NCBI GenBank assembly: GCA_026391715.1
Contig: JAPLDO010000148.1
Location: 8,605 to 72,604 of the forward strand
Direction of reading: 5' to 3'
Length of the DNA stretch: 64,000 nucleotides
From: Bacteroidota bacterium
Lineage (GTDB): Bacteria; Bacteroidota; Bacteroidia; Bacteroidales; FEN-979
The position numbers were made by a program, and so were the translations under genes. The notes below the pieces were generated by a model. It ran no database searches and had not been told where the DNA came from. It saw nothing but the letters and a program-made list of their open reading frames with translations. Position 1 is the first letter of the stretch; every line of letters begins with the position of its first letter. Positions 1,685 through 64,000 of this stretch are shown here, piece after piece.

Positions 1685-2767
1685 TCAAAACTCCGAACAC
1701 TCAAGCCTCGAATCATAGCCTCCTCGTTTTATTCCCCGCGAAGTTGAACCGCCTCCGGAACTACCGAGAAAACCTCCGGTATTGAAATCAATCACCAAAG
1801 TCACTTCATGCGCGCCTCCGGTTCCCATGAGTGCGCCGGAAAGCTGCATGTCATAACTGTAAGTAAATTTAATGCCAATGTTATCGGCAAAAACATAACG
1901 GTATCCAACCAGCATTGCAAGCGAAGTGTTGGCATAAGTTCCGAATGCGCCTTTGTACCAAAGTCCGAGGTAAACCCCATATTTGGTGAGGTTCATCCCT
2001 GCCTGGATGGCATTCAGTCCACCCTGCGACTGAAACATTATTCCGGGGTTTAGCTTTAGAGCGTCGTCGCTAACGGTGTTAAAGCCCGAAGAACTTCCGA
2101 TGGCATAGATCCCATCTATATGAGCGACATATTTTCGGGGCAAAGGAGCTTTTGCTGTTTGCAGGAATGACTGATCAGGTTCAAAAAGATGATCGGCTGC
2201 AAAACCAACGGTTCCGGAAAAGCTACCGGTTTCATCGGCAAACTGGACAATTCCCCCTACCCCGAAATCCGGTAAATTCAACACATTTCGGTCGGGACGT
2301 TGAAACCCCGTAGCATAAATGTTGCCATAACGCTCGTCGAGAGCGTCGGAGAAGACGAAATCATCCCAGTTTATTCGCTTCTGCAACCATGCAGCTTTGA
2401 AACCAAGTTGTCCGATGGCGTTTTTGGAAAGTGGAATTCTCACCGCAACAGCAAGTCCGAGGTTGAAATTCTTTATAAAACCAATGCCTTCATTATCGGT
2501 ATTGATTAGAAGTCCAACGCCGCCTGAACCAGGGAGGTTTCGTTCGCCAATGTCGGCGCTGAAATGGTATGACTTGAAATCGTAGGGTAAAGCAGGCCAT
2601 TGGTCGCGGAAAGCAAATCTTGCCCTTATTCCTGTATATAATCCGGTATAGGCGGGATTATAGTAAATCGGAACATTCTGGAATTGGGAGAAATAGGGAT
2701 CCTGTCCAAAAAGCTGAATCATTGCGTTAGTTAGCAAACAAATCAGAAAAAGTATTTTTATCTTCAT
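1685..2767 (-). CDS. PorP/SprF family type IX secretion membrane protein
   Basis: The 360-residue product begins with a signal peptide (MKIKILFLICLLTNAMIQLFGQ) followed by the family signature D-P-x-F-S-Q-F and Y-Y-N-P-A-Y-T-G (DPYFSQFQNVPIYYNPAYTG). It continues with alternating amphipathic strands typical of an outer-membrane barrel, including GVGLLINTDNEG. Known: PorP/SprF proteins are accessory outer-membrane components that support export or surface attachment of particular T9SS cargoes; SprF serves the giant adhesin SprB. The length is normal for the family. It stands alone on the minus strand, convergent with the broken T9SS cargo gene. A link with the giant SprB/PKD protein at 49 kb is possible but only inferred, since partners are usually adjacent. 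Confidence 0.9.
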   Translation of the reverse strand: MKIKILFLICLLTNAMIQLFGQDPYFSQFQNVPIYYNPAYTGLYTGIRARFAFRDQWPALPYDFKSYHFSADIGERNLPGSGGVGLLINTDNEGIGFIKNFNLGLAVAVRIPLSKNAIGQLGFKAAWLQKRINWDDFVFSDALDERYGNIYATGFQRPDRNVLNLPDFGVGGIVQFADETGSFSGTVGFAADHLFEPDQSFLQTAKAPLPRKYVAHIDGIYAIGSSSGFNTVSDDALKLNPGIMFQSQGGLNAIQAGMNLTKYGVYLGLWYKGAFGTYANTSLAMLVGYRYVFADNIGIKFTYSYDMQLSGALMGTGGAHEVTLVIDFNTGGFLGSSGGGSTSRGIKRGGYDSRLECSEF

Positions 2768-2921: not shown

Positions 2922-4841
2922 TTACTTCTTCTGTCCGGAAAAATAGTACCGGTAATCAAAAACAAGCCGGATCCCTGCATACCAAATGGTACGAGTTGCC
3001 GGTAAACCAATACCATTAAAGTCATTCGTGGCTGGCGTCCGTTTGCCCGGCACATCAAAACCGGCATGTAATTGAAAAAGAAGACTTCCAGTCTGTCGTG
3101 AAGAATAGGTACGGAAAGGACGGTATTCCACGATCGGGAATTCAAACCTGGTGGTATTCAGTTTGAAATACCCGTAAAAACTTTCATCTGGAGGAAATAC
3201 CGAGTAAGTATCTGATCTTCTTCCCACTCCATACATACTGATTGCAACCTCGCGTCCCAGCACGAACTGGAATCTCCCAACAGGAGTTGACAAACCCGTT
3301 TGCCAGGGGATCAACCCTCCATTTGCCGCAGTTGTGACAACGCGTTGCATGGAATTTGGTGATGTCAGCGCCAAAACAGGCGCTAAAATCACAAGGTCGC
3401 CGGGGATCAGGAAGAAGGGTAATCTGAAGCGGACAGTAAAAGCGACACGGGATGGAATAGCTGAGATCATACTGCCATATCCTTTTAAATCGGGGTTGTT
3501 ATTGGAACCATCATAAGCCTGGCTGGAGCTTAAATCAATACGGGTTCCCAGATCGAGGAAGACCAGTCCATCGCCCGCCTCGTTAAGTACCCCTTCCATT
3601 CCCAATCCAAAACGCAAGCCAAGTTCCAATCCGGCAGTGACGCCGTAACCCTTTTGATAGTCAAAAAATCCACCATCGAGATAATTGAGGTTGGCTGCGC
3701 CGCTAACCCCGGCAAAAGGACCCATTTCAGACCGGAATCTTGGAAATTGTCCCATTCCGGCAGTCAAACCCGGAACAGGAAATTCCATCAATACGGTATC
3801 ACACAAAATCCTTACTTTATTATCAATCTGGCGCTTGGGCATCACCATTGCCTTACTTACGTTAAATGTATCAGGAGTTGCCAGGGAAAGATCTTCCTGA
3901 ATGAAGCCAGGATCAAAGCTGATGGTTCCGCTAACCGCATCCAGCATTTGTTCCAGACTCTTAAGGATCGCGTCGGAGGTCCATCCAATATCCTCTTCCC
4001 GCATTGTGGCATCGCCCATTAATACCATTTGTTTACCTTGCCATGTATTTACTTCAATGCCTTCTTCGTTGTAATAATCATGTGTCCCCTTGCGTTTTGC
4101 AGCATCGCCCCAGATTCCCATCACATGACCCGATGTAAAACTATCCTCTAAAAAATGATCCGCGAATGCTTCATCTGCAAGAGCAGACAAAGCAAGGGCA
4201 GACCGCTGTTCGGGCGTCAGATCCTTTGAGTTCAGTCGGGCAGCCTTCTGTAAGGCGCTAAAATGAAACCAGGTATAAGTCCCAAGAGTATTCATGTCTG
4301 TTCCTTCTTTAAAACACAACGAAAAATAGACTTCAGCTTTGGTATTCACAGCCGGAAGCGTCAGCAGAAAATGACCATTATTTTTTCCGGCTCTCGAAAC
4401 GTACTCCGGATCGGCGCGAAGCAGCTTTATATCCGAAATCCTTACAGCGCTGATACGCGAACTGCGATTTTTCGACTCGTCAAGTCCAATTTTCAGCCGG
4501 GCGGTAATATCGGCTACATTCAGAATCCACTTCGATTTGAGAACAATATTGGTCATATCCTGCGCAGATACGGAGTGGTCGCCTGCAATCCCTGTCCATG
4601 CGGCATAATCGAGGCATTGAGGCTTTATACCCTGGTCGGGTTCAATAACCGATCCACAAAGCCGCAACTCGTAACCTTTTCTTGCAGACGCCCAAAGTTG
4701 ATCGAGGATTGCCCGTCGGTTCGGGTCCAGTTTTTTGATGGCGGCAATCATGATTTCGCGGTGCTCCGGGTAAACCCAGGCTGATGCAACCAATGAAAAG
4801 CCCGAAATCATTAGTAATGTCAGAAAAATTCTTGTTTTCAT
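2922..4841 (-). CDS. Secreted zinc-dependent phospholipase C/P1-nuclease-like protein with a long C-terminal domain
   Basis: The 639-residue product has a signal peptide ending in ASA, so cleavage would leave Trp22 as the first residue (WVYPEHREI). In zinc-dependent phospholipase C and S1/P1 nucleases the N-terminal Trp and nearby His residues bind zinc. Other likely ligands are visible: GDHS, DHFLEDSFTSGHV and GTHDYYNEEG. These fill about the first 330 residues. The remaining 300 or so are rich in glycine and alternating hydrophobic residues (GLELGLRFGLG, IPSRVAFTVRFRLPFFL) and look like beta strands, perhaps an outer-membrane barrel. The gene stands alone. Phospholipid or another phosphodiester is a plausible substrate by family, but not shown. 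Confidence 0.7.
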   Translation of the reverse strand: MKTRIFLTLLMISGFSLVASAWVYPEHREIMIAAIKKLDPNRRAILDQLWASARKGYELRLCGSVIEPDQGIKPQCLDYAAWTGIAGDHSVSAQDMTNIVLKSKWILNVADITARLKIGLDESKNRSSRISAVRISDIKLLRADPEYVSRAGKNNGHFLLTLPAVNTKAEVYFSLCFKEGTDMNTLGTYTWFHFSALQKAARLNSKDLTPEQRSALALSALADEAFADHFLEDSFTSGHVMGIWGDAAKRKGTHDYYNEEGIEVNTWQGKQMVLMGDATMREEDIGWTSDAILKSLEQMLDAVSGTISFDPGFIQEDLSLATPDTFNVSKAMVMPKRQIDNKVRILCDTVLMEFPVPGLTAGMGQFPRFRSEMGPFAGVSGAANLNYLDGGFFDYQKGYGVTAGLELGLRFGLGMEGVLNEAGDGLVFLDLGTRIDLSSSQAYDGSNNNPDLKGYGSMISAIPSRVAFTVRFRLPFFLIPGDLVILAPVLALTSPNSMQRVVTTAANGGLIPWQTGLSTPVGRFQFVLGREVAISMYGVGRRSDTYSVFPPDESFYGYFKLNTTRFEFPIVEYRPFRTYSSRQTGSLLFQLHAGFDVPGKRTPATNDFNGIGLPATRTIWYAGIRLVFDYRYYFSGQKK

Positions 4842-48992: not shown

Positions 48993-51900
48993 ATGAAAAA
49001 CAGTTACATCGGTTTTCTGCTTTTTACGGTTTTATTCTTTTACGGAAACCATTCTTTGGGTCAAGACACCCTGTATTGGGTTGGAGGACCCGGAAGTTGG
49101 GGCGAACCCTTCCACTGGTCAACCACTTCCGGAGGGTCCACAGGATCGATAATTCCCGGACAGACGACAAGCGTGGTATTTGACGGAAACTCCTTTACCG
49201 GTAATGCACTCTTCAAATTTGATCAAGGAACAGCGCCATTCATTACCACGTGTGAATGCAATGATATGATTTGGAGAAATATTCCGTTTCAAATAACGTT
49301 GGCAGGCTCAAAGCCGATCTTCATATTCGGAATGCTTCAGTACCTACCTAATATGGATTTTAATTTTACCGGACAAACCACCTTTGCCGCAGTAAATAAA
49401 ACAGTGACAATTAAAACAGCAGGCAAATCCATTCCAGCAGGCGCTATCTTCGACGGTAATAATGGTCATTTTAATTTGCTTGATGATTTTTATGTCCTGG
49501 GAAATTTTGATATAAACAGCGGGCACGTGATCACAAATAACCATAACGTCAAATGCTATCGTTTCAACTCCGCGCCGGTCAATCCATTGAATATCCGTAG
49601 CATTGACCTTGGATCTTCATTGCTGACCATACGATCGATGAATAACCTTACCAATATCAGCAGTCGCATTACTCATGTTAATAGCTCCATGAAAGTATAT
49701 TCAAGTGGCGCTTCGAAAATATTATTTACCGGCGATATCACCGAACCTGGCAATCTGTGCACATTCGATGCGGCAGATAGCCTGAAGTTTGATAATATTG
49801 AGTTTATGACGAATGGCGAACTTATTGCCCAACATGATACTTTCAATGACGCCTTGTTCAGAGCAAATGGAACTTTACATGTTGACACATGTATTTTTGA
49901 TTCTGTTGAAATATATCAGTTGGGACTTGCCTATTCAAATAAATGTATCTACAACCGGTTTTTATTTTCCACGCATCCCTATTGTGGTTGCGGGGATTGC
50001 AGGAATATTGATTATGGCTGGCTTCAAGGCAACGACAACCAGATTAACTACATGGTTCATTTCAATCACAACGGTACAATTAAAGGGAATAATAACTATG
50101 CCGATTCCTGCCGGTTTGAAGCCAATGGCAACCTGCTGTCGGGTTCCAATGAATTTAATAAAGTGATGATGAGGCGCATCTGGAGTTATGGGTGTTCATG
50201 CCCAGCTTATTCAAAAGACACATTGACAATAGAAAAAAATAAAATTCAGACTATCCATGACACCATCATCCTTTTTGGGGAATACCATTGCGAACACACA
50301 CGCATTACCAGCAATGATAACTTATTACAGGGAACTATTGCTACAAACCGTCCCCAATTCATTGATTATATTGAAATCAAAGGCGTCAACGGTAATATTC
50401 TGATACCGCCGGCAGCCCCGGATACTGCAAAGCGTTCCATCGACCTTGGAAATAACTCAAACTGGTATTTCAAAAACAATTATATCCCATTGGAGGACTC
50501 CCTTACAGAAGTAATTAATGTAAGCCCCTGTAGTTTCAACACTAACGGCGTAGTGACAATATGGGGCAAAGGAGGAGAGATGCCCTATACCTTTTATCGG
50601 TACACAGGTAGTGGGAACTGTTCCGGTGGATACTCAGCCAACAATCCCCCTACGAACAATGTTTTCACCGGACTTGGTAAAGGAACCTACCAATTTAAAA
50701 TTATGGACGCTTACGGTTGCGAAAGCGTTAGCGTAAACGAAACGGTTGGCGGTCCGACTCCGGTCATCATCAATTCTGTGACAGTTACGCCAATTCCCTG
50801 TTATAAGGATCCTCCGAATATCAATGGGACAATCTTAATCCATGCCACGGGCGGAACTGGGGCGCACGAATATTATTTAGAACCAAGACCCTGGCAGACT
50901 GACAGCGTTTTTAATGATGTCGCGCTTGGAGAGCGCCACATACAAGTCAGGGATGCGCTGGGTTGCCTTTCGTCGCACGATACAATTATGATGACGCAGC
51001 GCGCCGAACTCTTTCTGATTATCGCGCCTGTTGATCTCGTGAAATGCTGGGGCGACAGTACCGGGAAAATCAAAATCAGGGTTTGGGGTGGAACGCCGCC
51101 TTACAACGTTTTGATCGAACCAGTTGCTCCGATTGTTCATCCTCAAAATCCTATAAATGATATCATTCTGGCGCCAAATCCCAGCATCTGGAAAGAGTAT
51201 CTGCTTTATGCCGGCAATTATCACATAAAAATTACGGATGGCAATGGGTGTATTATGGAGGATTACAGAAACGTTTTTGAAAATGCCCGGATGGAGTTTA
51301 CTTACGTTAAAACGACTGTTACAGTTGGTTCTTCAACAACCTATTGCCTCGATGTTACTCCAACAGGCGGAATTCCACAGTATACGCATCATTGGAATAA
51401 TGGCGCAACAACATCAATGGCGTGTGGACTTATTCCCGGGACTTGGTGCGATACCATTACCGATTCGCAGGGTTGCCGCGATACAGCTTGCATCCTGATC
51501 GAGCCGCTGGCAATTCAACCAATTCCTCCCGACACTGTTTGTTTTGGGATGACTAACGGATCTACCTGCGTTACCGCTTATGGAGGATCAACGCCTTACG
51601 GTTATCACTGGAGTAATAACACAACTCAATCATGCCTCATCAATGTGAACCCCGGAACCTATTCAGTTACCGTTACCGATGCGAGTGGAGGCGTTGTGCT
51701 GGGAAGCGCCATTATTTATGAAAACCCCCAAATCACTGCCACTTTCACCCGCGATACCGTTTCCTGCGGCGGCGGCAGCGATGGCTCAATCACAATAACC
51801 CCTTCCGGTGGAACGCCATACCTGAATCCGCCGGAATATAGCTTTCTGTGGTCAAATGGAAGTACAACCAATGTAGCCTCAGGATTAACTGCCGGCTTAT

Positions 51901-54900
51901 ATTCTGTAACGGTAACCGATTCCATCGGATGCCCGCAGGCGTTTTCAGTAGTTTTGCCGGAACCGCCACCGATAAACATCGGCTTCAAAACTTATTCCAA
52001 TTGCGTTACCTATTCGGCGGAAGCGCTCGTTTCAGGCGGTAATTCTCCTTATGCCTATTTCTGGTCGGGCGGACAAACAACAAATCCTGCATCAGGCTTA
52101 TCGCCAGGAACTTATACCGTAACTGTAACTGATGTGAAATCCTGTTCAAAAACAGCGTCGGTAAATGTTTCAGCTCTAGCCGTTACTACAATCTCAACCA
52201 ATGTCGCCTGCTTCGGAGCCTGCGACGGAACTGCCACAGCCACTGCTTCGGGAGGGAATTTGCCTTATATCATAACCTGGAGAAACTCTTCCAATATTAT
52301 TGTGATACCGAGCGAAACAACTCCGGTAAGCGGGAAAATCATAAATCTTTGCCCCGGCGATTATACTGTTACCGTAGTGGATTCTAATAATTGCCAGATC
52401 TCAAAAATAGTAACCATCAGCCAGCCGGCAAATCCGCTCGCAATAACTACATTAACTTATACGGCAATGCTTGATTGCTTCGGCGATTGCGACGGTGTGG
52501 CGGCAGTTTTTGCCAGCGGCGGAACCGCGCCATATACCTACTTATGGGAAAATTCAGCCACACCCGGCTACATTATCGGAACTGCGCAAAACATCTCCGG
52601 CTTATGCGCCGGAACATATTGTGTAACTGTTACAGATGTCAGAGGTTGCTTTGTGAATTCCTGCTTCTCAATTTTACAACCTTCTCAGATTCTTTTTTCC
52701 TTTACGAAAACCGATATCAATTGTTTCACCAATGGCGACGTCGGACAAATCACAATTCAAAACGTAACCGGAGGAACGCCGCCTTATGTCTATACCATTC
52801 AATGCCCTTCAGGTACATATCTCGCTTCACCAGTGTTTACCGGTTTGCCTCCTGGGAATTACAACCTGGGAGTGATGGATTCCAAAGGATGCAAATCGTC
52901 GTGTACGCCAGTTCCGATTATCAGACCCGATTCAATATCAATCATTTTTAATCCTGTAAATAATCCAACCGGTAGCGGTCTTAACAACGGATCAATAACT
53001 TCCAGCGCTTCGGGCGGCGTACCGCCATTTATTCACTATTGGTTTGATTCTGATGGAATTCTTATCCAACAGGACGCCGCGACAACCTCTACAATTCAGA
53101 ATTTATTCGCAGGCGCGTATTGTGACAGCGTTGTTGACGCAAATAACTGTTTCAACAAAAAATGCACTACATTGTATCAACCGGCGGCTTTGATTATAAT
53201 CGTTGATTCCTCAAATATCAGTTGCTTCGGCGAACGCGACGGTTGGATCGAACTCACTATTTCCGGCGGCGTTCCGCCTTATTCGGTTCTATATAACGGA
53301 CAAACAACAATTCTGAGTTCTCCTCCATTTATTTTCAGAATACAGGATCTGCCCGCAGGCAACTATACATTCGTGGTAACCGATAACAACATGAACAACG
53401 CTGTAAAGACGGTTATAATCATCGAACCCGATCCGGTTATCATAAACTTCGAGGCTCATGATGTTTGCTTTGGAAGTACCGATGGATGGATCAAAGCGAC
53501 TCCTTTACAGGGAACTCCGCCTTACACATATCTTTGGAGTAATGGAGAAACAACCAATCAGATTAATAACCTCACGCCAAATCTTTGGTATTATCTTACC
53601 GTTACTGATTTGAGAGCATGTCGGGCGCGCGACAGCGTATTTCTTCCGGAAAATCCCCAGCTCTTCGTCCACATCAACAATGTTGATTCAACGGTTTGTA
53701 AAGGCAATAGTATTCAGATGAACGTAGATGGTTTCGGCGGAATCTATCCCTATACCTATTCGTGGCTGCCAACCGCCGGAGTCGTTAATCCAGACCAGCT
53801 TGAGCCGCTGATTACCCCTGTGTTTTCTGAAACATACGTGATTACCATGACCGATACCAAAGGTTGTGCGGCGAAGGATAGTATAACCATTGGCATTGAT
53901 TCAATTCCGCACGCGGCATTTACTTTTCAAAATATCTGCCAAAGCCTCGAGGTTCATTTTACCAGTCAGTCAACCGGCAATGGATCGGGAATTTATGAGT
54001 ATCTGTGGGATTTTGGCGATGGTTATCAATCGTCAGAGATAAATCCTGTTCACACTTACATTATGGTTGGGAGTTATAATGTTTCTCTCACGGTAAAAAA
54101 TTACTCCGAATGTACCGATTATACTATGGATACCGTATATGTAAATCCTGTGATCCAGGTTGATTTTTCAGCCGACACGGTGTGTTTGGGCGCCGAAACC
54201 AGGTTTACGGGATACTCATTGAATCCGGGGACTGTTGTTGATTACGGGAAATGGTATTTTGACGATCTGAATCCTATTACTGTTCAACCGTGGGTTCCGG
54301 TTATGCTGCATCAATTTACCTATTCAGGAATGCATAGCGTGCGACTTGACCTGTTTGATAATACCGGTTGTTCCGAAGGAATTACAAAACCGGTTCTGGT
54401 TAAATCGGCTCCGCAGGTTGATTTCACCTATAACTGGGGATGTACGAGCGATACGGTGAAATTTACCGGTCAGTCGTCGGGCGCAGGCGGTCCGGCATTC
54501 TGGTACTGGGATTTCGGAGATCCGCCTTCAGGGGCAGCCAACCATGCCTATATTCAAAACCCTTCGCATGTTTACAATTCGCCGGGGCTTTACCATGTTA
54601 CGTTGAAAGTAACCGGCGCGAATACCTGTGACAATTCGGCTACCAAATCGTTTTATTACGATAAATCGCCCAATGCCGCGTTTAACTGGTCTTCGCCATG
54701 TTTTGGAAGCGAAACCCATTTTACCGACCAGTCGTATGCCTCAACAGGATTACTGATTATGTGGCAATGGAATTTCGGAGATCCGAATACCGGTCCCATG
54801 AATACTTCTTCGTTGCAAAATCCTTCGCATACCTTTTCCGCACCTGGAACCTATCAGGTGAAACTGAAAGTTTATGACAACGGACTTTGCTATGATTCGC

Positions 54901-57900
54901 TCATCCGGGAGGTGGTAATTTTCGCTTCGCCAACAGCAGGATTCAATGTAACGGAAGGCTGCGTGGGTGAGTTCACCGAATTTCATGATATTTCTGTTGA
55001 TCCAGGATCGTTAATAAATCATTGGCATTGGGATTTTGGAGATGGCAATACCATGTCCTACGGTAGTTTTACCGATCCTGTGATTCATCCTTACGCCGTT
55101 TCCGGTCAATATGTAGTGGTTCTTACCGTGACCGATACCAACGGATGTTCAAACTTATATACAAAGTTTGTGAATGTTCACCCACTGCCAACGGTTATGT
55201 TCCAGTTCAATCCGGCATGCGCAAATCAGACCACCTATTTTACCGATTTTTCAAGTGGTTCGGGAAGTCCTGTGATTTCCTGGTATTGGGATTTTGGCGA
55301 TTTCACTCCGACCAGCACAGTGCAAAACCCTACGCATACCTATACAACTCCGGGATTATATCCGGTAACGCTGTGCGTAACCAACGCCGCCAACTGTTCA
55401 AGCTGCAATACGCAAACCATCAGCGTTAGTCCAAGTCCGGTGGCAGATTTTACCGCCGAAGCTGTTTGCAAGGATTCTCCTACCCATTTCAATAATCTTT
55501 CCTATTGCATGGGCGACAACATCGTGTCGTGGCAATGGGATTTCGGCGATGGTTCGCCAACTTCAAATGTCCAGTGGCCCGTTCATACCTTTACCTCTGC
55601 GGGAACATTCAGTGTCTCGCTGATTGTGACGTCGCTTCATGGTTGTATCTCAACTGTTGTTAAACCTGTGATAGTTCATGACCGTCCGGTTGCCAATTTT
55701 TCATGGAATCAAACCGGAGGTCAGAATTGTTTCACTCCCGGCGTCTCAACTCAATTTACCGATTTGTCAACAATCGTTGGCGGAAATCTGCTTAGTTCGT
55801 GGCTTTGGGATTTTGGAGATGGAAACTATGGCAATACTCAAAACCCGGTTCATCAATATTCAAGTACCGGCGTCTATTATGTTACGCTCACCGTTTTTGA
55901 TATCAATGGTTGCCAGAATTCCATAATCAAACAGGTAATTCTCGCTGAAAAGCCAATTGCAAGTTTCAGCCATACCATAACCAATTGCGACGAGGTTTGT
56001 TTTACCGACGCTTCTGTTGGTTCCGGGGCTTCAATCCAATCCTGGTTCTGGGATTTCGGAGATCCGGCGTCGGGCGTTCAGAATTTTTCGACGCAGCAAA
56101 ACCCTTGTCATATCTATTATACGCCTGTTACGCAAACCTATTCAATCAGACTGATCGTAACCAATGCCAACGGCTGTTCCGATACGCTTGATCTGCCTGT
56201 TACCGTTAGCAAACCCGTTCCTGATTTCGCAACCGTAAACCAACCTTGTCAGGGCGTGGCGACGGAATTCCAGGATCTGTCAGTTTCAGCGGGAAACTTC
56301 ATTTCGGCTTGGATCTGGGATTTCGGCGATCCGGGATCGGCGTCAAACACATCTACCGATCAAAACCCGATTCATATTTATACCAGCGTAGGCACAAAAT
56401 ATGTAACGCTTACCGTTACCAATGGAAATGGATGCACTTCCAACATCGGCAAACCCATAGAGGTTTCCTATCCGCCGCAGGCAAACTGGGATTTCGACCG
56501 CCCCAACTGTTTCCCCAATCCAACGGAGTTCAGGGATATATCAATGGCGCAGGGTTCAATATCAATTGTTTCCTGGGATTGGAATTTTGGCGATGGAACT
56601 CCACATTCAACTTTGAAGGATCCCGTTCATTCTTATCTTCTCGAAGGAACCTATCCGGTTACATTAACTGTTGTAAATGCTAATGGTTGCGAAAACTATA
56701 TCACCAAACCATTTTTCAACTTCCGCGGACCGGCGGCTGCTTTCATCTCCGATCCCGTTTCAAAATGTATAAAGGAGATAGTAACCTTCACTGATCAGTC
56801 ATCTCCCGCTTTCGGAAATATCGTCTCCTGGAATTGGGATTTTGGCGATCTTTCATCTCATTCAACAATTCAGAACCCTGGTCATGTGTATGCTGCGGCA
56901 GGAATATTTACGGTGAAACTGATTGTGATTGATGAAAGAGGTTGCGCCGATTCGGTATCTCAAACAATTACCGTAAATGATTTACCTGCAACCGATTTTA
57001 TTGCCGATACGGCTTGCCTCGGAAGCGAAACCCATTTTACGAACCAGACTTCTGGGAGTAACCTCTCATGGCTTTGGAATTTCGGCGAACCAACGTCGGG
57101 GGTGTTTAATACATCAACTCTCGAAAATCCGGTTCATCAGTATAGCAGCCCCGGCGATTATTTTGTACAGCTCACCGTTACCAACTCCAACTCCTGTCGT
57201 AAGGATACCGTCAAAAAGATAACGGTTGTGCCGCTCCCAATGGTAAATTTCAGTAATTCAAGTCCATGTTCGGGCGAAGCCGTTCATTTCACTGATGAGT
57301 CAACTATCTATCAGGGAACGGTATCTGAATGGAAATGGAATTTTGGCGATGGAACCGGCGATTTCCTGGGGCAAAACCCAACGCATACCTTTATCAATCC
57401 GGGTCCGTACAATGTAACCCTCACGATTACCACAACCGGAAATTGTCCGCCTACTTCGGCAACAAAGCAAATCCTGATAAAATCTGCGCCAATTGCCGAT
57501 TTTGCCGTATCCTCCTTATGTGTTGGTCAGGTTCAGTTTAACGATATGACCAACCAGAACGGCGGAACTTCTCTGATATCGTGGGATTGGAATTTCGGAG
57601 ATCCTCTTTCGGGACCAAGCAATTTGTCGCAGTTGCAAAACCCAATCCATATTTATACAACTCCGGGAAGCTATTTAGTTTCGCTAATCGTTGCAAATAC
57701 CGATGGGTGCCGGGATACGCTTACATCTCAGGTAACGGTATTGCCTTTGCCTGCGGTTGATTTCACCGCCGGTTTGTCATGCGTTTCCGATACCACCTGT
57801 TTTGTCGTCAATACCGTTGTTACAAATATTGGCGCAATTACAGCTTTCGCATGGGATCTGAATGGCGATGGTTCCATTGAATCTTACGATCAGAACCCAT

Positions 57901-60900
57901 GCCATGTTTACCCAACTTCGGGAACGGTGAATGTAACTCTTACGGTCACAGATACCAGCGGTTGCAAAAACTCAATCACCCACGCCATTAATGTAAAACC
58001 GCCGCCGATAGCCGATTTCAACACTGCCGGAGCCAATTGCTCCAACGATTCCATCAGGTTTATCAACCATTCAACCTGTTCGTCAGGTTACATAACTCAA
58101 TGGATTTGGAATTTCGGGGATGGAACTTCGGATGTAACTGTGAACTTCCCGGCAAACCCGAATGTAGCTCACCTTTACAACGGACTTGGACCCTATACCG
58201 TTAAATTAACCGTTGAAAGTTCACTGGGTTGCCGGAATGTAAAAACGCAAATAATTACTCCGGCGCCATCGCCTCTGGCAATTTTCAACCATTCGGAGCC
58301 TTGTTTGTCGCAGGCAGTTCAATTTACCGATCTTTCATCGCCCAACGGAGGCGGTATTATTTCTTACTGGGAGTGGAACTTCGGAGATCCAGCTTCGTTG
58401 GCAAACAATACATCTCTGCTGCAAAATCCTGCTCACATCTTTTCCGCATTGGGAAATTATCAGGTAAAACTGACTGTGACGAATTCAAATGGTTGTAAAA
58501 AAGATACAACAATCGGCGTAACTATAAAACCGCTTCCGGGAGGAGATTTTTCATGGCAAACATCATGCGTGAATCAACCTGTGCAGTTTACGGTAAATCC
58601 GGCAGTAACCAATATTCCTGTTCTGACTGCCCACCACTGGGATTTCGGCGACGGACAAACGTCGGACGATCTTAATCCTGTTCATCTGTATCTGAATACC
58701 GGTAATTTTACCGTAATACTTACAATTACTGATACCAGCGGATGTTCCAGCCATATTTCCCACGTTTTGAATATCGAACCGCAGCCAACGGCATTTTTCT
58801 CAAATCCGGGAACAACTTGTTCAAACGACAGCGTTGCTTTCACAAATCTTTCTACAACTACTTTTGGTTACATCCAGAAATGGGAGTGGGATTTCGGCGA
58901 TGGTTCGCCGCATGAGATTGTCTTGTTCCCGAATAATCCAAATGTGAAAAAGAGATATCTTCTTGAAGGAACATACCTGGTTTCATTGACCGTTACTAAT
59001 TCCCACGGATGTTACCATACGTACAGTCACGATGTAACTGTAATTCCAACGCCGGTTGCCAATTTCCATTATGCCGATACCTGTGCAAAAACTCTGGTGC
59101 ATTTTACTGACGCTTCGTTTCCGAATGGAGCAGGCAATAATGTTTCATGGACATGGGATTTCGGAGATCCCACTTCCGGTATTGACAACAGTTCGGCGTT
59201 ACAAAACCCGACGCATATCTTTACTGCCGGAAACGCAACTTACGAGGTACGGCTGATCGTGGTCAATTTTAATAATTGCAGCGATACAATTATCAAATCT
59301 GTATTTATCCGTCCGGCTCCTCCGGTTGATTTTACTTTTGATCCGACCTGCCTTAACAAGCTGGTGGATTTCACGGCAAATCTGACTATCATGTTGCCTG
59401 CAACAATTTCCTCCTGGGATTGGGATTTCGGCGATGGCAGCGCCCATTCCACCAATCCGGGAAGCGCTTCACATCTTTATCTTGCCGCAGGCGTTTACCA
59501 GGCTGTTTTAACTGTTGTTGACACTACGGGATGCAGCAATTCATTGACGAAAACCGTTTACATTGTCCCCGCGCCAATTCCGGCATTTACATTTACTTCG
59601 GCGACCTGCGACTCAATGCCGGTTCAGTTTACCGATCAGTCGTTAATCCCCGCCGGTTTTCCCGGACATATTACATCATGGACATGGAGATGGGGCGACG
59701 GCTCTGTCACAACTATTTCATCGCCTGAAAGTCCTAATGTCAGCCACGTTTTTCCGGGAGGGGTTTACCATTTTAATGTATGGTTAACGGTTACTTCGAG
59801 TTACGGATGTATTGATTCCATAGGAAAACCTGTCACGCTTATTCCGAAACCAACTTCGGCTTTTGAGGTTTCTCCGGGTACGCCAACATGCGCCGCGCAG
59901 TCAGTTCAGTTCAATGATCTTTCGGCGCAGAATGGCGGCGGAATCATCAGTTTATGGTCATGGAATTTTGGCGATGCGGGCTCCGGCGTCAATAATGTTT
60001 CGGCGCTTCAGAATCCGTTGCATACCTTCACCGGTTCCGGCGTTTATCTCGTAACGCTTATCACCCGAAACCTGAATAATTGCGCCGATACGGTTATAAA
60101 ATCCATTACCATTAATCAGCCTCCGTTTGCCAATTTCTCAGCCGATACTGCGTGTGCAGGAAATCACATGACCTTTACCGATTTGTCGGCAGCCAATTCC
60201 GGTGGCGGAATTATCAGCCATTTATGGAATTTCGGAGATGGAAATACCTCAACTCTGGTAAATCCGACAAATATTTATAGCGCTCACGGCGTTTATAATG
60301 TTACGCTAACAGTAGTAAATTCCAATGGTTGCCAGCATGACACCGTGAAACAGGTGATTGTGAGTCCCAAGCCGATTCCGGGCTTTACCTCTACTTCTCC
60401 CGCTTGTGACTCAACGTTTGTTCATTTTACCGATCAGTCAGTCCTTCCTTCGGGAACGTTGGGTTTTATCAATAAATGGATATGGACATGGGGCGATGGA
60501 ACCAGCAGGACGATCATCAGTCCTGAAAGTCCGAATGTATCTCACCTGTTTCCTGCCGGGCAATACAGTTTTACGGTGAAGCTCAGGGTTGTTACAAATT
60601 CAGGATGCACAGATTCGATAAGTCAGCCGATTCAATTGATTCCGCGTCCGGTTGTATCTTTTGAAGCGCTTCCCGGCTCTCCTGCATGCGCAAACCAGCC
60701 GGTTCAGTTTAACGATCTTTCGCAAACCAATGGCGGAGGAAACATTGCCGGCTGGTTATGGAATTTCGGAGATCCTGGTTCAGGATCAAACAACCTCTCA
60801 AATTTGCAAAACCCGACGCACAATTTTGCAACCGCAGCCACATACAATGTAGCCCTTACAGTAACCAATGCCAACGGATGCAGCCGTTCAGCCACGCTGC

Positions 60901-63900
60901 CTGTTATCGTCGCCGTTAAACCTGTGGCAAACTTTATTGCCGATACGGCATGCGCCGGAGGAGCAACGCAATTTACCGACGCCTCCGTTTCGCCTGGAAG
61001 TCTTATCTCCTCCTACGCCTGGAATTTCGGCGACGGCGGCTCGTCAAATCTTCAATCGCCGTTGCATACCTTCGCTGCCTACGGCATATACAACGTGACG
61101 CTAACAGTAGTAAATTCCAATGGTTGCATTCATTCGGTTACAAAACAGGTAATGGTTCATCCGCGTCCTGTGCCATCATTTACCGTTTCGCAAGCCTGTT
61201 GTATTGGAAGTCCGGTTACATTTACCGATCACTCATTCCTGCCATCAGGTTTTTCGGGATATATCAAAAAATGGATTTGGAATTTCGGTGATGGAACTCT
61301 GCCTGAAGTTGTAACCTATCCTGATCCGCCAAATGTAACGCATACCTTTGCCGGCGCTTCAACGTCGCACAATGTAAGGCTTACGGTAATATCAACATCA
61401 AATTGCGCCGATTCGCTTGAGATAACCGTGAACAGCATTCCTTCGCCGGTAGCCAATTTCAGTAAACCGGGCGCGACCTGCTTAAACCAGCCGGTTCAGT
61501 TTAACGATCTTTCGCAAACCAATGGCGGAGGCAGTATTCAAACATGGAGCTGGAATTTCGGCGATCCTGGTTCGGGGGCAAACAATTTTTCCACGCTTCA
61601 GAATCCGACACATATTTTTTCAACAACAATGCCATATACAGTTACTCTTGTTGTTACGAGCGCCAACGGATGTTCAAACACGCATGATACCGTTGTGACA
61701 ATCCACCCGCTTCCGGTTGCCAATTTCACAAATACCAGCGCCTGCCAAAGCTATCCGGTAACTTTTTCGGATGCTTCCACGCCGGCGCCAGCTATTTTAT
61801 CCCATTCCTGGAACTTCGGCGATGGTGGCGTTTCAACACTCGCCTCGCCCCAGCATATTTTTACATCATACGGAAATTTCCTGGTGACATTAACTGTGAC
61901 TGACACTAACGGATGTATTCATTCCAAATCAAAAACCGTAACCGTTAACCCGAAACCTGTGGTTGATTTTTCAGTGGCTGAAGTGAGATGCGTCGGTACG
62001 CCGGTATCTTTTACCGATAATTCGTTTGTTCCAGTCGGATATTCTGGAACAATTTCAGGATGGTTATGGAATTTCGACGATGGAAATACCTCAACGAATC
62101 CAAACCCGGTGCATACTTTTACCGGCGTTGGTCCAAGTTATAATGTAAAACTCAGGGTAACTCTGACTACCGGATGTATTGATTCCATTGTCAAACCTGT
62201 TAACCTTATTCCGTCGCCAATAGCAAACTTCAGCCATTCATCCGCTCTTTGCAAAAACCAGCCCATTCAGTTTACCGATTTGTCGCTGACCAACGGAGGA
62301 AGCGCTTTGCAAAATTGGAGCTGGAATTTCGGCGATCCGGGGTCGGGAACCAATAATACCTCGAACCTGCAAAACCCTACTCATATATTTGCCAGCGCAG
62401 GCTCATACAGCGTGATTCTGATGGTTGAAAATGTTAATGGTTGCCAAAAATACGATACCGTTCCGGTTACAATCAACATTCTTCCGATAGCCGGTTTCGA
62501 CGCCTCCGGTTCCTGCCAGGGAAATCCTTTCACATTTACCAACACATCTACCGCCAATGCCGCTTCCTATACATCTTCCTGGAACTTCGGCGACGGAGGA
62601 ACATCTGTTGCACAATCGCCCCAGCATACCTATTCTGCTTATGGCAATTACAGCGTAACCCTCACCATCGTCAACTCAAACGGATGTACTCATAGCGTTA
62701 CAACGCCGGTTGTTGTTTATCCAAAACCGGTTGCAGGCTTTACATTTTCGCCAACAAGCTGTGCAGGCAGTCCGGTAAGTTTTACCGATCAGTCGTACAT
62801 GCCAACCGGATTTACCGGGTCAATTTCATCATGGGCATGGGATTTTGGCGACGCAACCACATCAACATTGCCAAACCCGACTCATACTTATACCGGCGCA
62901 GCCACCGCTTATCTCGTAAGGTTGACTGTAACTTCGACCCACGGATGTACAGGATTTATTGAAAAGCCTGTTGCGCTGATTCCGGCGCCGGTTGCAAACT
63001 TTACCCACACCGGTCCATTATGCGCCAATCAGCCGGTTCAGTTTACCGATTTATCCCAAATCAATGGCGGTACCGCAATTCAGTCATGGAGTTGGAATTT
63101 CGACGATCCTCTGTCGGGTGCCAATAATACCTCCACAAATCAAAATCCGACACACTCCTTTTCGGGAGCCTCTGATTACCATGTAATCTTGATTGTTACC
63201 AACGTAAATGGTTGCAAGGATACCCTGTTGCCGTATCCGCAGATATCAACAACTGCGCGTCCTTTGGCAAAATTCAAAGCAGATACGGCTTGTCAGGGCG
63301 GTTATACCCACTTCACCGACTCTTCAACTACAATTTCAGGGACAATCGTTTCCCATTTCTGGGAATTTGGCGATGGAACAAATTCTACGGCAGTAAATCC
63401 AAGTCATCTGTACGCCACTACCGGAGTTTTTAACGTTAAACTTACAGTTGCCAACAGCCTGGGATGCCAGAAAGACACTATTATCCCTGTAACTGTACTT
63501 GGTAAACCTATTGCATCATTCACTTACGCTTCCCCGAACTGTGCCGGCGATTCGGTTCAGTTCAACGATTTTTCTACCACGCCCCACGGTTATATCAAAA
63601 AGTGGGTATGGAATTTTGGCGACGGAACCCCCGTTGTACCAATTATCTTTCCGCAGCCTCAGAATATAAAGCATGCATTCGCAAACGGAGGAACTTACAA
63701 TGTTACATTGACGATTACCACAACGGATAATTGTGAAACGCAGAAAGTCAACACGGTTCAGATAGGATTCCGTCCTTATGCAAATTTCAGTTTTAGCGCA
63801 AATGCCTGTCCTGCCCAACCGGTTCAATTTACCGATCTGTCGCAACTGAACGGCGGTCCGGTATTAACAAACTGGAACTGGAATTTCGGCGATCCCACAA

Positions 63901-64000
63901 CCGGCGTAAGCAATACATCTACCGCGCAAAACCCTACGCATATATTCAGCGGCAGCGGCGCTTTCATAGTTCATCTGATTGTTACCAATTCAAACGGATG
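48993..64000 (+). CDS. Giant secreted SprB-repeat/PKD-repeat surface protein (3' end outside window)
   Basis: One frame stays open from the ATG at 48993 to the right edge: at least 5,002 codons with no stop. A GGAGGA at 48981-48986, unusual in Bacteroidota, supports this start. The product has a signal peptide (MKNSYIGFLLFTVLFFYGNH), an N-terminal surface-protein region (YWVGGPGSWGEPFHWSTTSG, residues about 20-510, parallel-strand-like), then about 14 SprB-type repeats (residues about 510-1640, GTYSVTVTD) and about 39 PKD repeats (WxWNFGD... NPTHIF ... VTN.NGC). SprB proteins are T9SS-exported gliding adhesins; PKD proteins are large surface adhesins or stalks. Two Cys per repeat suggest disulfides. 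The sorting domain should lie beyond the window. The function is inferred as an extended adhesin. Confidence 0.92.
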   Translation, partial: MKNSYIGFLLFTVLFFYGNHSLGQDTLYWVGGPGSWGEPFHWSTTSGGSTGSIIPGQTTSVVFDGNSFTGNALFKFDQGTAPFITTCECNDMIWRNIPFQITLAGSKPIFIFGMLQYLPNMDFNFTGQTTFAAVNKTVTIKTAGKSIPAGAIFDGNNGHFNLLDDFYVLGNFDINSGHVITNNHNVKCYRFNSAPVNPLNIRSIDLGSSLLTIRSMNNLTNISSRITHVNSSMKVYSSGASKILFTGDITEPGNLCTFDAADSLKFDNIEFMTNGELIAQHDTFNDALFRANGTLHVDTCIFDSVEIYQLGLAYSNKCIYNRFLFSTHPYCGCGDCRNIDYGWLQGNDNQINYMVHFNHNGTIKGNNNYADSCRFEANGNLLSGSNEFNKVMMRRIWSYGCSCPAYSKDTLTIEKNKIQTIHDTIILFGEYHCEHTRITSNDNLLQGTIATNRPQFIDYIEIKGVNGNILIPPAAPDTAKRSIDLGNNSNWYFKNNYIPLEDSLTEVINVSPCSFNTNGVVTIWGKGGEMPYTFYRYTGSGNCSGGYSANNPPTNNVFTGLGKGTYQFKIMDAYGCESVSVNETVGGPTPVIINSVTVTPIPCYKDPPNINGTILIHATGGTGAHEYYLEPRPWQTDSVFNDVALGERHIQVRDALGCLSSHDTIMMTQRAELFLIIAPVDLVKCWGDSTGKIKIRVWGGTPPYNVLIEPVAPIVHPQNPINDIILAPNPSIWKEYLLYAGNYHIKITDGNGCIMEDYRNVFENARMEFTYVKTTVTVGSSTTYCLDVTPTGGIPQYTHHWNNGATTSMACGLIPGTWCDTITDSQGCRDTACILIEPLAIQPIPPDTVCFGMTNGSTCVTAYGGSTPYGYHWSNNTTQSCLINVNPGTYSVTVTDASGGVVLGSAIIYENPQITATFTRDTVSCGGGSDGSITITPSGGTPYLNPPEYSFLWSNGSTTNVASGLTAGLYSVTVTDSIGCPQAFSVVLPEPPPINIGFKTYSNCVTYSAEALVSGGNSPYAYFWSGGQTTNPASGLSPGTYTVTVTDVKSCSKTASVNVSALAVTTISTNVACFGACDGTATATASGGNLPYIITWRNSSNIIVIPSETTPVSGKIINLCPGDYTVTVVDSNNCQISKIVTISQPANPLAITTLTYTAMLDCFGDCDGVAAVFASGGTAPYTYLWENSATPGYIIGTAQNISGLCAGTYCVTVTDVRGCFVNSCFSILQPSQILFSFTKTDINCFTNGDVGQITIQNVTGGTPPYVYTIQCPSGTYLASPVFTGLPPGNYNLGVMDSKGCKSSCTPVPIIRPDSISIIFNPVNNPTGSGLNNGSITSSASGGVPPFIHYWFDSDGILIQQDAATTSTIQNLFAGAYCDSVVDANNCFNKKCTTLYQPAALIIIVDSSNISCFGERDGWIELTISGGVPPYSVLYNGQTTILSSPPFIFRIQDLPAGNYTFVVTDNNMNNAVKTVIIIEPDPVIINFEAHDVCFGSTDGWIKATPLQGTPPYTYLWSNGETTNQINNLTPNLWYYLTVTDLRACRARDSVFLPENPQLFVHINNVDSTVCKGNSIQMNVDGFGGIYPYTYSWLPTAGVVNPDQLEPLITPVFSETYVITMTDTKGCAAKDSITIGIDSIPHAAFTFQNICQSLEVHFTSQSTGNGSGIYEYLWDFGDGYQSSEINPVHTYIMVGSYNVSLTVKNYSECTDYTMDTVYVNPVIQVDFSADTVCLGAETRFTGYSLNPGTVVDYGKWYFDDLNPITVQPWVPVMLHQFTYSGMHSVRLDLFDNTGCSEGITKPVLVKSAPQVDFTYNWGCTSDTVKFTGQSSGAGGPAFWYWDFGDPPSGAANHAYIQNPSHVYNSPGLYHVTLKVTGANTCDNSATKSFYYDKSPNAAFNWSSPCFGSETHFTDQSYASTGLLIMWQWNFGDPNTGPMNTSSLQNPSHTFSAPGTYQVKLKVYDNGLCYDSLIREVVIFASPTAGFNVTEGCVGEFTEFHDISVDPGSLINHWHWDFGDGNTMSYGSFTDPVIHPYAVSGQYVVVLTVTDTNGCSNLYTKFVNVHPLPTVMFQFNPACANQTTYFTDFSSGSGSPVISWYWDFGDFTPTSTVQNPTHTYTTPGLYPVTLCVTNAANCSSCNTQTISVSPSPVADFTAEAVCKDSPTHFNNLSYCMGDNIVSWQWDFGDGSPTSNVQWPVHTFTSAGTFSVSLIVTSLHGCISTVVKPVIVHDRPVANFSWNQTGGQNCFTPGVSTQFTDLSTIVGGNLLSSWLWDFGDGNYGNTQNPVHQYSSTGVYYVTLTVFDINGCQNSIIKQVILAEKPIASFSHTITNCDEVCFTDASVGSGASIQSWFWDFGDPASGVQNFSTQQNPCHIYYTPVTQTYSIRLIVTNANGCSDTLDLPVTVSKPVPDFATVNQPCQGVATEFQDLSVSAGNFISAWIWDFGDPGSASNTSTDQNPIHIYTSVGTKYVTLTVTNGNGCTSNIGKPIEVSYPPQANWDFDRPNCFPNPTEFRDISMAQGSISIVSWDWNFGDGTPHSTLKDPVHSYLLEGTYPVTLTVVNANGCENYITKPFFNFRGPAAAFISDPVSKCIKEIVTFTDQSSPAFGNIVSWNWDFGDLSSHSTIQNPGHVYAAAGIFTVKLIVIDERGCADSVSQTITVNDLPATDFIADTACLGSETHFTNQTSGSNLSWLWNFGEPTSGVFNTSTLENPVHQYSSPGDYFVQLTVTNSNSCRKDTVKKITVVPLPMVNFSNSSPCSGEAVHFTDESTIYQGTVSEWKWNFGDGTGDFLGQNPTHTFINPGPYNVTLTITTTGNCPPTSATKQILIKSAPIADFAVSSLCVGQVQFNDMTNQNGGTSLISWDWNFGDPLSGPSNLSQLQNPIHIYTTPGSYLVSLIVANTDGCRDTLTSQVTVLPLPAVDFTAGLSCVSDTTCFVVNTVVTNIGAITAFAWDLNGDGSIESYDQNPCHVYPTSGTVNVTLTVTDTSGCKNSITHAINVKPPPIADFNTAGANCSNDSIRFINHSTCSSGYITQWIWNFGDGTSDVTVNFPANPNVAHLYNGLGPYTVKLTVESSLGCRNVKTQIITPAPSPLAIFNHSEPCLSQAVQFTDLSSPNGGGIISYWEWNFGDPASLANNTSLLQNPAHIFSALGNYQVKLTVTNSNGCKKDTTIGVTIKPLPGGDFSWQTSCVNQPVQFTVNPAVTNIPVLTAHHWDFGDGQTSDDLNPVHLYLNTGNFTVILTITDTSGCSSHISHVLNIEPQPTAFFSNPGTTCSNDSVAFTNLSTTTFGYIQKWEWDFGDGSPHEIVLFPNNPNVKKRYLLEGTYLVSLTVTNSHGCYHTYSHDVTVIPTPVANFHYADTCAKTLVHFTDASFPNGAGNNVSWTWDFGDPTSGIDNSSALQNPTHIFTAGNATYEVRLIVVNFNNCSDTIIKSVFIRPAPPVDFTFDPTCLNKLVDFTANLTIMLPATISSWDWDFGDGSAHSTNPGSASHLYLAAGVYQAVLTVVDTTGCSNSLTKTVYIVPAPIPAFTFTSATCDSMPVQFTDQSLIPAGFPGHITSWTWRWGDGSVTTISSPESPNVSHVFPGGVYHFNVWLTVTSSYGCIDSIGKPVTLIPKPTSAFEVSPGTPTCAAQSVQFNDLSAQNGGGIISLWSWNFGDAGSGVNNVSALQNPLHTFTGSGVYLVTLITRNLNNCADTVIKSITINQPPFANFSADTACAGNHMTFTDLSAANSGGGIISHLWNFGDGNTSTLVNPTNIYSAHGVYNVTLTVVNSNGCQHDTVKQVIVSPKPIPGFTSTSPACDSTFVHFTDQSVLPSGTLGFINKWIWTWGDGTSRTIISPESPNVSHLFPAGQYSFTVKLRVVTNSGCTDSISQPIQLIPRPVVSFEALPGSPACANQPVQFNDLSQTNGGGNIAGWLWNFGDPGSGSNNLSNLQNPTHNFATAATYNVALTVTNANGCSRSATLPVIVAVKPVANFIADTACAGGATQFTDASVSPGSLISSYAWNFGDGGSSNLQSPLHTFAAYGIYNVTLTVVNSNGCIHSVTKQVMVHPRPVPSFTVSQACCIGSPVTFTDHSFLPSGFSGYIKKWIWNFGDGTLPEVVTYPDPPNVTHTFAGASTSHNVRLTVISTSNCADSLEITVNSIPSPVANFSKPGATCLNQPVQFNDLSQTNGGGSIQTWSWNFGDPGSGANNFSTLQNPTHIFSTTMPYTVTLVVTSANGCSNTHDTVVTIHPLPVANFTNTSACQSYPVTFSDASTPAPAILSHSWNFGDGGVSTLASPQHIFTSYGNFLVTLTVTDTNGCIHSKSKTVTVNPKPVVDFSVAEVRCVGTPVSFTDNSFVPVGYSGTISGWLWNFDDGNTSTNPNPVHTFTGVGPSYNVKLRVTLTTGCIDSIVKPVNLIPSPIANFSHSSALCKNQPIQFTDLSLTNGGSALQNWSWNFGDPGSGTNNTSNLQNPTHIFASAGSYSVILMVENVNGCQKYDTVPVTINILPIAGFDASGSCQGNPFTFTNTSTANAASYTSSWNFGDGGTSVAQSPQHTYSAYGNYSVTLTIVNSNGCTHSVTTPVVVYPKPVAGFTFSPTSCAGSPVSFTDQSYMPTGFTGSISSWAWDFGDATTSTLPNPTHTYTGAATAYLVRLTVTSTHGCTGFIEKPVALIPAPVANFTHTGPLCANQPVQFTDLSQINGGTAIQSWSWNFDDPLSGANNTSTNQNPTHSFSGASDYHVILIVTNVNGCKDTLLPYPQISTTARPLAKFKADTACQGGYTHFTDSSTTISGTIVSHFWEFGDGTNSTAVNPSHLYATTGVFNVKLTVANSLGCQKDTIIPVTVLGKPIASFTYASPNCAGDSVQFNDFSTTPHGYIKKWVWNFGDGTPVVPIIFPQPQNIKHAFANGGTYNVTLTITTTDNCETQKVNTVQIGFRPYANFSFSANACPAQPVQFTDLSQLNGGPVLTNWNWNFGDPTTGVSNTSTAQNPTHIFSGSGAFIVHLIVTNSNG
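50521..53910 (+). repeat. SprB-type repeat array (about 14 copies)
   Basis: Each unit is 70-95 residues, with a Cys near the start (xxCFG, xxCYKD), a G-G-T/V-P-P-Y core, W-S/x-N/D-G, and the closing G-x-Y-x-V-x-V-T-D-x-x-G-C. The closing motif is seen at least ten times. The last unit (53660-53910) is diverged and marks the switch to PKD repeats. Confidence 0.85.
53911..64000 (+). repeat. PKD-repeat array (about 39 copies, continuing past the window)
   Basis: The core W-x-W-[ND]-F-G-[DE] recurs every 240-285 bases from about 54,005 to 63,870, two copies being degenerate (54,247 Y-F-D-D; 57,850 D-L-N-G-D-G). Each unit begins V-A-N-F or similar, has one Cys 6-8 residues later and ends N-G-C. 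I counted the cores by eye. Confidence 0.9.
57490..64000 (+). repeat. Three-unit higher-order repeat of PKD domains, period about 786 bases
   Basis: Three unit types alternate: one with PVQFTDLS ... FGDPGSG.NN.S.LQNPTHIF, one ending in NSNGC.HSVTK and an A-type with longer F-G-D-G-T ... PNV.H. The first type recurs at about 57,585, 58,370, 59,150, 59,955, 60,750, 61,545, 62,320, 63,090 and 63,870: nine copies, eight steps of 770-805 bases. Before 57.5 kb the order is not regular. Confidence 0.8.

What the first reader, a model, noticed from the sequence alone, without database searches (positions are those of the whole stretch)
57490..64000. Trimeric higher-order repeat in the PKD array
From 57.5 kb on the PKD units are not random neighbours but cycle through three distinct types, with the FGDPGSG.NN.S.LQNPTHIF type at nine positions spaced 770-805 bases. 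The units of one type resemble one another more than they resemble adjacent units, which points to expansion by block duplication of a three-domain cassette. This is like satellite higher-order repeats, in a bacterial adhesin.
Basis: seen in the sequence. Interest (0 to 1): 0.65.

Follow-up and report, generated by a model that had tools for sequence, protein, structure and literature searches.

The report
Three-domain cassettes in a giant adhesin
A giant bacterial surface protein carries a long chain of similar domains in a strictly repeating three-type pattern, shared by its whole family of lake bacteria, and in a sister protein the chain grows and shrinks only by whole threes, which makes it a clean natural case of block duplication.

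Summary
One gene (window 48993 to beyond 64000; 5878 codons to the contig end) has 48 PKD domains. Units 15-39 (57477-64034) cycle A-B-C eight times plus a final A. The nine A units are spaced 771-798 bp. Identity peaks at lags 3, 6, 9 and 12, no shuffle of 5000 reaches the signal, and every unit's nearest neighbour within the array lies a multiple of 3 away. Models trained on other genera type all 25 units correctly.

The same cassette occurs in 43 of 43 genomes of this uncultured Bacteroidales family. In a shorter sister protein conserved across it, unit counts are 19, 25, 28, 31 or 34, that is 1 mod 3; the counts changed at least 11 times, always by threes. So block duplication is well supported, but it is old: window cassettes are at most 67% identical in DNA, and the expansion is shared, not strain-level.

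A by-product: each domain's two conserved cysteines appear to pair with neighbouring domains, not within the domain (odds ratio 121 outside the family). This predicts a disulfide staple at every joint. The likely role is a T9SS-secreted surface stalk or filament; the best multi-domain fold match is GhpA.

The parts
48993..64000 (+). Giant surface-protein gene, ATG to beyond the window; open for 5878 codons to the end of contig C184
48993..53894 (+). N-terminal part: hydrophobic leader, unassigned region, then SprB repeats (PF13573, 7 stretches)
53895..57476 (+). PKD units 1-14, without a three-unit cycle
57477..64000 (+). Trimeric super-repeat array, units 15-39, (ABC)x8 + A; unit 39 ends at 64034 on the contig
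57477..58259 (+). Cassette 1 (A15 B16 C17)
58260..59039 (+). Cassette 2 (A18 B19 C20)
59040..59837 (+). Cassette 3 (A21 B22 C23)
59838..60635 (+). Cassette 4 (A24 B25 C26)
60636..61433 (+). Cassette 5 (A27 B28 C29); 70% identical to a cassette of the sister protein on contig C146; units 27-30 modelled by AlphaFold2 (pLDDT 95.3, pTM 0.78)
61434..62204 (+). Cassette 6 (A30 B31 C32)
62205..62975 (+). Cassette 7 (A33 B34 C35)
62976..63761 (+). Cassette 8 (A36 B37 C38)
63762..64000 (+). Final A unit (A39), continuing to 64034; followed on the contig by nine non-cycling PKD units and the C-terminal tail

Best explanation
The gene encodes a giant secreted surface stalk of an uncultured Bacteroidales. 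An ancestral run of three diverged PKD domains (A with a small helix-bearing FGDP-SG-NN loop, B the shortest, C with extra loop residues) was duplicated as a block, again and again, in the middle of the stalk. Once A, B and C had diverged, unequal recombination or slippage worked only between same-type units, so the array changes by whole cassettes and keeps the order. The nine membrane-proximal units next to the C-terminal signal stay fixed. Shown: the cycle, its conservation, and the changes by threes in the sister protein. Inferred: the recombination mechanism, T9SS export and the stalk role. Also inferred: domain n is linked to domain n+1 by a disulfide, which would make a stiff covalent rod.
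For: Lag-3/6/9/12 identity peaks, 0 of 5000 shuffles. 25 of 25 nearest neighbours in phase. HMMs from other genera type 25 of 25 window array units and 524 of 527 units over the family in ABC order. The cassette is in 43 of 43 family genomes. Orthologue unit counts are 1 mod 3 and ORF lengths step by about 266 aa, with at least 11 changes on the tree, all by threes. Unit shifts between genera are multiples of 3, and the last 9 units are fixed by position. L045, with 34 units, holds the closest cassette pair among complete orthologues (81% aa, 78% DNA). Surface role: SprB repeats, SprA translocon in the genome, a PorP/SprF gene directly after the sister gene, a sub-threshold T9SS type B / CHU_C match in the sister protein, and GhpA as the best multi-domain fold match. 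Staples: AB-Cys(n) and FG-Cys(n+1) are lost together (odds ratio 121, p 2e-17), with no association at four other offsets.
Against: The changes by threes were shown for the sister protein's orthologues, not for strains of the window gene. No very recent duplicate was seen (youngest pairs about 78-80% DNA), so the recombination step was not caught in the act. The unit tree does not give three perfect clades. The sorting-domain match is below the curated cut-off in the sister protein and absent in the truncated window gene. One FG cysteine (window unit 45, the same place in all relatives) lacks the expected partner loss.
Confidence: 0.8

Rival explanations
1. The three-unit register is kept mainly by selection for structure: A-B, B-C and C-A joints differ, three domains make one step of a superhelix or of a lateral contact pattern, and arrays out of register do not assemble, as in titin, whose super-repeat matches the thick filament.
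For: Order kept in 524 of 527 units over 8 genera although same-type units are mostly only 40-55% identical; type-specific linkers and loops; the four-domain model superposes on GhpA filament domains better than on other domain arrays (rmsd 5.3-6.3 over about 315 residues against mostly 9-12 for fibronectin and Ig arrays).
Against: Recombination limited to same-type units gives the same pattern without selection; related PKD arrays elsewhere do without a three-unit cycle or have two-unit cycles, so it is not a general need of the fold.
Confidence: 0.35
2. No block duplication: single domains were duplicated and the three types then converged by selection at every third place.
For: Units have diverged far (A 49%, B and C 38-39% mean identity within type).
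Against: Counts change by threes at least 11 times; whole-cassette pairs at 72-81% identity are found at lag 3; convergence would not tie the unit count to threes.
Confidence: 0.03
3. Assembly artefact or chance pattern in a long repetitive gene.
For: The source is a draft assembly in 256 contigs, and the contig ends at the gene's 3' end.
Against: Cassettes are at most 67% identical in DNA, too different for collapse; the same arrangement recurs in dozens of independently assembled genomes; shuffles never reach it.
Confidence: 0.01

Closest known systems
Domain-repeat proteins expanded by multi-domain blocks (Bjorklund et al. 2006, PMC1553488)
   Same: Identity peak at a fixed domain lag, block duplication, expansion in the middle of the array
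   Different: That survey found such repeats mostly in eukaryotes, does not mention PKD, and gives no case of a block size kept through a bacterial family
Olduvai/NBPF 3-mer HORs (PMC10475015)
   Same: Three diverged domain types in fixed order, repeated as triplets inside a protein-coding gene
   Different: Those are young, with minimal divergence between triplets, and their number is human-specific; here the triplets are old and diverged and shared across a bacterial family
Titin A-band super-repeats (PMC10665226)
   Same: Recursive duplication of a multi-domain super-repeat; domains at one position resemble each other more than their neighbours, most strongly in the middle of the array
   Different: Eleven Ig/FnIII domains per long repeat, muscle protein; there the register is thought to match the thick filament, here any partner is unknown
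GhpA grappling hook protein of Aureispira (PDB 9flp, 9fls)
   Same: Giant Bacteroidota surface protein; the best multi-domain fold match to units 27-30; reported as T9SS-secreted and heptameric (PMC11205867)
   Different: Only 20-28% identity, no match in a sequence-profile search of the PDB; no three-unit cycle tested there; heptamer and hook not shown here
SprB gliding adhesin with SprF
   Same: SprB repeats in the window protein; PorP/SprF gene directly after the sister gene; SprA translocon in the genome
   Different: The bulk here is PKD units; gliding not tested; no SprF gene can be seen next to the window gene because the contig ends
Periscope proteins (PMC8201768)
   Same: Surface stalk whose repeat number varies and sets its reach
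   Different: There the most variable cases have highly alike repeats and numbers change even between similar strains; here repeats are diverged, and numbers change between species by threes

Membership tests
Higher-order repeat (n-mer, n=3) | Distinct monomer types in fixed cyclic order; same-type units more alike than neighbours | tested here: met
Higher-order repeat (n-mer, n=3) | Copies of the n-mer nearly identical (recent homogenisation) | tested here: not met
   best window cassette pairs 55% aa, 65-67% DNA
Block-duplicated domain repeat | Repeat number changes by whole blocks between relatives | tested here: met
   sister-protein orthologues: counts 1 mod 3, at least 11 changes; not testable for the window gene itself
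PKD domain array (PF18911/PF00801) | Profile matches over the cut-off along the array | tested here: met
T9SS type B cargo | C-terminal sorting domain TIGR04131/PF13585 over the cut-off | tested here: inconclusive
   sister protein 27.8 of 35 bits and 25 of 27 bits; window gene cut by the contig end, no match
T9SS type B cargo | Genome has the SprA translocon and PorP/SprF proteins | tested here: met
SprB-like gliding adhesin | SprB repeats | tested here: met
SprB-like gliding adhesin | Needed for gliding, moves on the cell surface | not testable with these tools
   needs a cultured strain
GhpA grappling hook | Shared multi-domain fold | tested here: inconclusive
   Z 15.1 to 9flp over 316 residues but rmsd 6.3; a shared fold does not show common function
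GhpA grappling hook | Heptameric filament ending in a hook, used in predation | not testable with these tools
   needs imaging of a cultured strain
Periscope protein | Highly alike repeats | tested here: not met
   repeats 38-49% identical within type
Periscope protein | Strain-level variation of repeat number | not tested
   one genome per species was available

The most novel reading that the evidence does not exclude
Giant PKD stalks of Bacteroidales are covalent rods in which each domain is locked to the next by a disulfide, and the three-domain cassette is a structural register (one step of a superhelix or of a GhpA-like multi-stranded filament), so that evolution can lengthen or shorten the stalk only in steps of three domains.
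Probability: 0.3. Interest if true: 0.75.

Novelty: new variant of a known kind. Interest (0 to 1): 0.55.

Why it matters
It is a bacterial counterpart of titin super-repeats and Olduvai triplets, with dozens of natural variants whose length differs by exact steps. That makes an open question directly testable: does a domain block stay fixed because recombination needs matching sequence, or because the structure needs the register? The cysteine coupling gives a concrete, testable prediction for how some of the largest bacterial surface proteins resist force, and it holds outside the family too.

Tried and rejected
Tandem Repeats Finder found no array here, because units are too diverged and its period limit is 500. 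The unit tree alone could not settle the three-clade question, with only 89 columns, so held-out typing and counts were used instead. A control set chosen by PKD_4 alone outside the family rejects the idea that all PKD arrays cycle in threes: lag 3 is the best lag at p <= 0.004 in four long arrays (L064, L065, L071, L075), not in most others. Exact breakpoints of the youngest duplications could not be fixed: similarity fades gradually, perhaps inside domains. L057, with 26 units, looked like an exception, but its first unit aligns with the sixth PKD unit of L045, so it lost its N-terminal units. L059 gives 24 at first count; its first detected unit starts about 120 residues late, where its relative L102 has a weak unit, so 25 is inferred. 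Lag-3 values for L010 and L011 are alignment artefacts (long non-PKD inserts) and were ignored. Intra-domain pairing of the two cysteines was tested and not supported. The first Pfam call failed because the protein was too long. Literature searches found no description of a three-domain PKD cassette or of inter-domain disulfides in PKD stalks, but subscription papers, including the GhpA paper, are not held.

Full report
What is there. The finding lies in one gene that starts at window 48993 and runs off the window. The contig continues 2.6 kb further; the frame is open for 5878 codons and reaches the contig end inside what looks like the C-terminal secretion signal. The protein has a leader, an unassigned region, SprB repeats (PF13573, 7 stretches) and 48 PKD units of about 81-93 residues.

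The observation. Units 15-39 cycle through three types. The nine A units start 771-798 bp apart. Mean identity is 0.473, 0.43, 0.415 and 0.413 at lags 3, 6, 9 and 12, against 0.32-0.345 at other lags; none of 5000 shuffles of unit order reached the lag-3 excess. All 25 units have their closest relative within the array at a multiple of three. Type lengths differ: A 87-91, B 81-85, C 87-93 residues. The decline from lag 3 to lag 9 suggests that neighbouring cassettes tend to be younger copies. The tree of all 48 units clusters types far beyond shuffles, but with 89 columns it does not give three clean clades.

Family-wide evidence. Cassette A27-B28-C29 as a query finds 43 of 43 genomes of the same family, often as consecutive in-register matches, and a sister protein on contig C146 of the same genome at 70% identity. 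In all 24 long PKD proteins examined there, lag 3 is the best lag (most of these were picked by the cassette query, so this is not an unbiased sample). HMMs for A, B and C, built without the genus under test, type 524 of 527 units upstream of the nine fixed C-terminal units in the expected ABC order, and all 25 of the window array.

Changes by threes. The sister protein has one clear orthologue in most family genomes. Lengths of complete frames fall in groups: 1950; 2411-2492; 2667-2775; 2951-3001; 3235, that is, steps of about one cassette (266 aa) or multiples of it. Unit counts, after removing a weak hit to a separate N-terminal domain at residues 18-29, are 34 (1), 31 (13), 28 (10), 25 (5) and 19 (1), all 1 mod 3. 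One of these, L059, needs one undetected N-terminal unit, inferred from position. The one other protein, L057, is a second copy that lost its N-terminal units. On a tree of the fixed C-terminal part, counts change at least 12 times, 11 without L057; if unit changes were free, all being multiples of three would have a chance of about (1/3)^11. Between genera, matching units shift by multiples of three, and the last nine units match by position. L045, with 34 units, holds the closest cassette pair among complete orthologues, 81% aa and 78% DNA. In the window the best pairs are 55% aa and 65-67% DNA, so expansion there is old.

How wide. Outside the family, long PKD arrays chosen by PKD_4 matches alone mostly show no three-unit cycle; four families in the order do. 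A scan of named genomes places the relatives in uncultured Bacteroidales, many from lakes (for example Lac Pavin), with 42-46% matches in Lentimicrobiaceae. Most Bacteroidales hits cycle in threes; Chitinophagales and Sphingobacteriales hits mostly do not, and a few arrays cycle in twos (this set was picked by the cassette query).

Cysteines. Each unit has two near-invariant cysteines, one between strands A and B, one between F and G. In seven-strand Ig-like folds these loops lie at opposite ends, AB towards the next domain and FG towards the previous one (general knowledge). Loss patterns agree. In 44 mixed arrays from loci outside the family set, AB(n) and FG(n+1) are lost together (15 joint losses, odds ratio 121, p 2e-17), with no association at offsets -2, -1, 0 or +2. 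The last domain lacks the AB cysteine in all 44 family proteins. This predicts a disulfide at each joint. It is inferred from coupling; no coordinates were available to measure distances. The exception is the fourth unit from the end, which lacks FG without a matching loss.

Structure and role. AlphaFold2 models units 27-30 with pLDDT 95.3 and pTM 0.78; A units carry a short helix in the loop after FGDP. Single domains match collagenase PKD domains. The best matches over all four domains are fragments of GhpA, the grappling hook protein of Aureispira (Z 13-15 for most, about 315 residues, rmsd 5.3-6.3; most fibronectin and Ig arrays 9-12). The genome has SprA and PorP/SprF genes, one of them directly after the sister gene. 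I therefore read the protein as a T9SS-exported surface stalk or filament. Whether it serves gliding, adhesion or prey capture cannot be told.

Mechanism. Block duplication by recombination between same-type units explains order, quantised length and turnover limited to the middle. Selection for a structural register is not excluded and may act as well.

Caveats. The genomes are mostly metagenome assemblies. Counts were made for the sister protein, since the window gene is cut by its contig. Unit detection at the N-terminus needed low thresholds.

Noticed in passing
window 53895-64000 and loci L063-L097, L128-L196: AB-loop cysteine of one PKD domain and FG-loop cysteine of the next are lost together, which points to inter-domain disulfides along giant PKD arrays; no association within a domain.
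   Followed up: yes
L009, unit 45 (window numbering 65331-65600, beyond the window) and the same place in relatives: The fourth PKD unit from the end lacks the FG cysteine in all family proteins without the matching loss in the unit before it: an unexplained exception.
   Followed up: no
L012:15342-16436: A PorP/SprF-type gene follows the sister giant PKD gene within about 20 bp, like an adhesin-SprF pair; another PorP/SprF gene lies in the window at about 1796-2707, minus strand.
   Followed up: partly
L154, L163, L182, L184: PKD arrays with a two-unit cycle (lag 2 best), so block size differs between lineages; L072 and L175 show instead a gradient typical of single-domain duplication.
   Followed up: partly
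L057:7225-14559: A second copy of the sister protein in G023 that lacks the first five PKD units and has a different N-terminus.
   Followed up: partly
L120, L133, L175, L180: Records labelled Alphaproteobacteria, Fermentibacteraceae, Zixiibacteriota and Saccharospirillaceae carry PKD genes of the Bacteroidota kind; probably mislabelled or mis-binned contigs.
   Followed up: no
L010, L011 (contig C193): Two further giant proteins (5580 and 4842 aa) next to each other in the same genome end in about 19 and 12 PKD units of the same kind after long non-PKD regions.
   Followed up: partly
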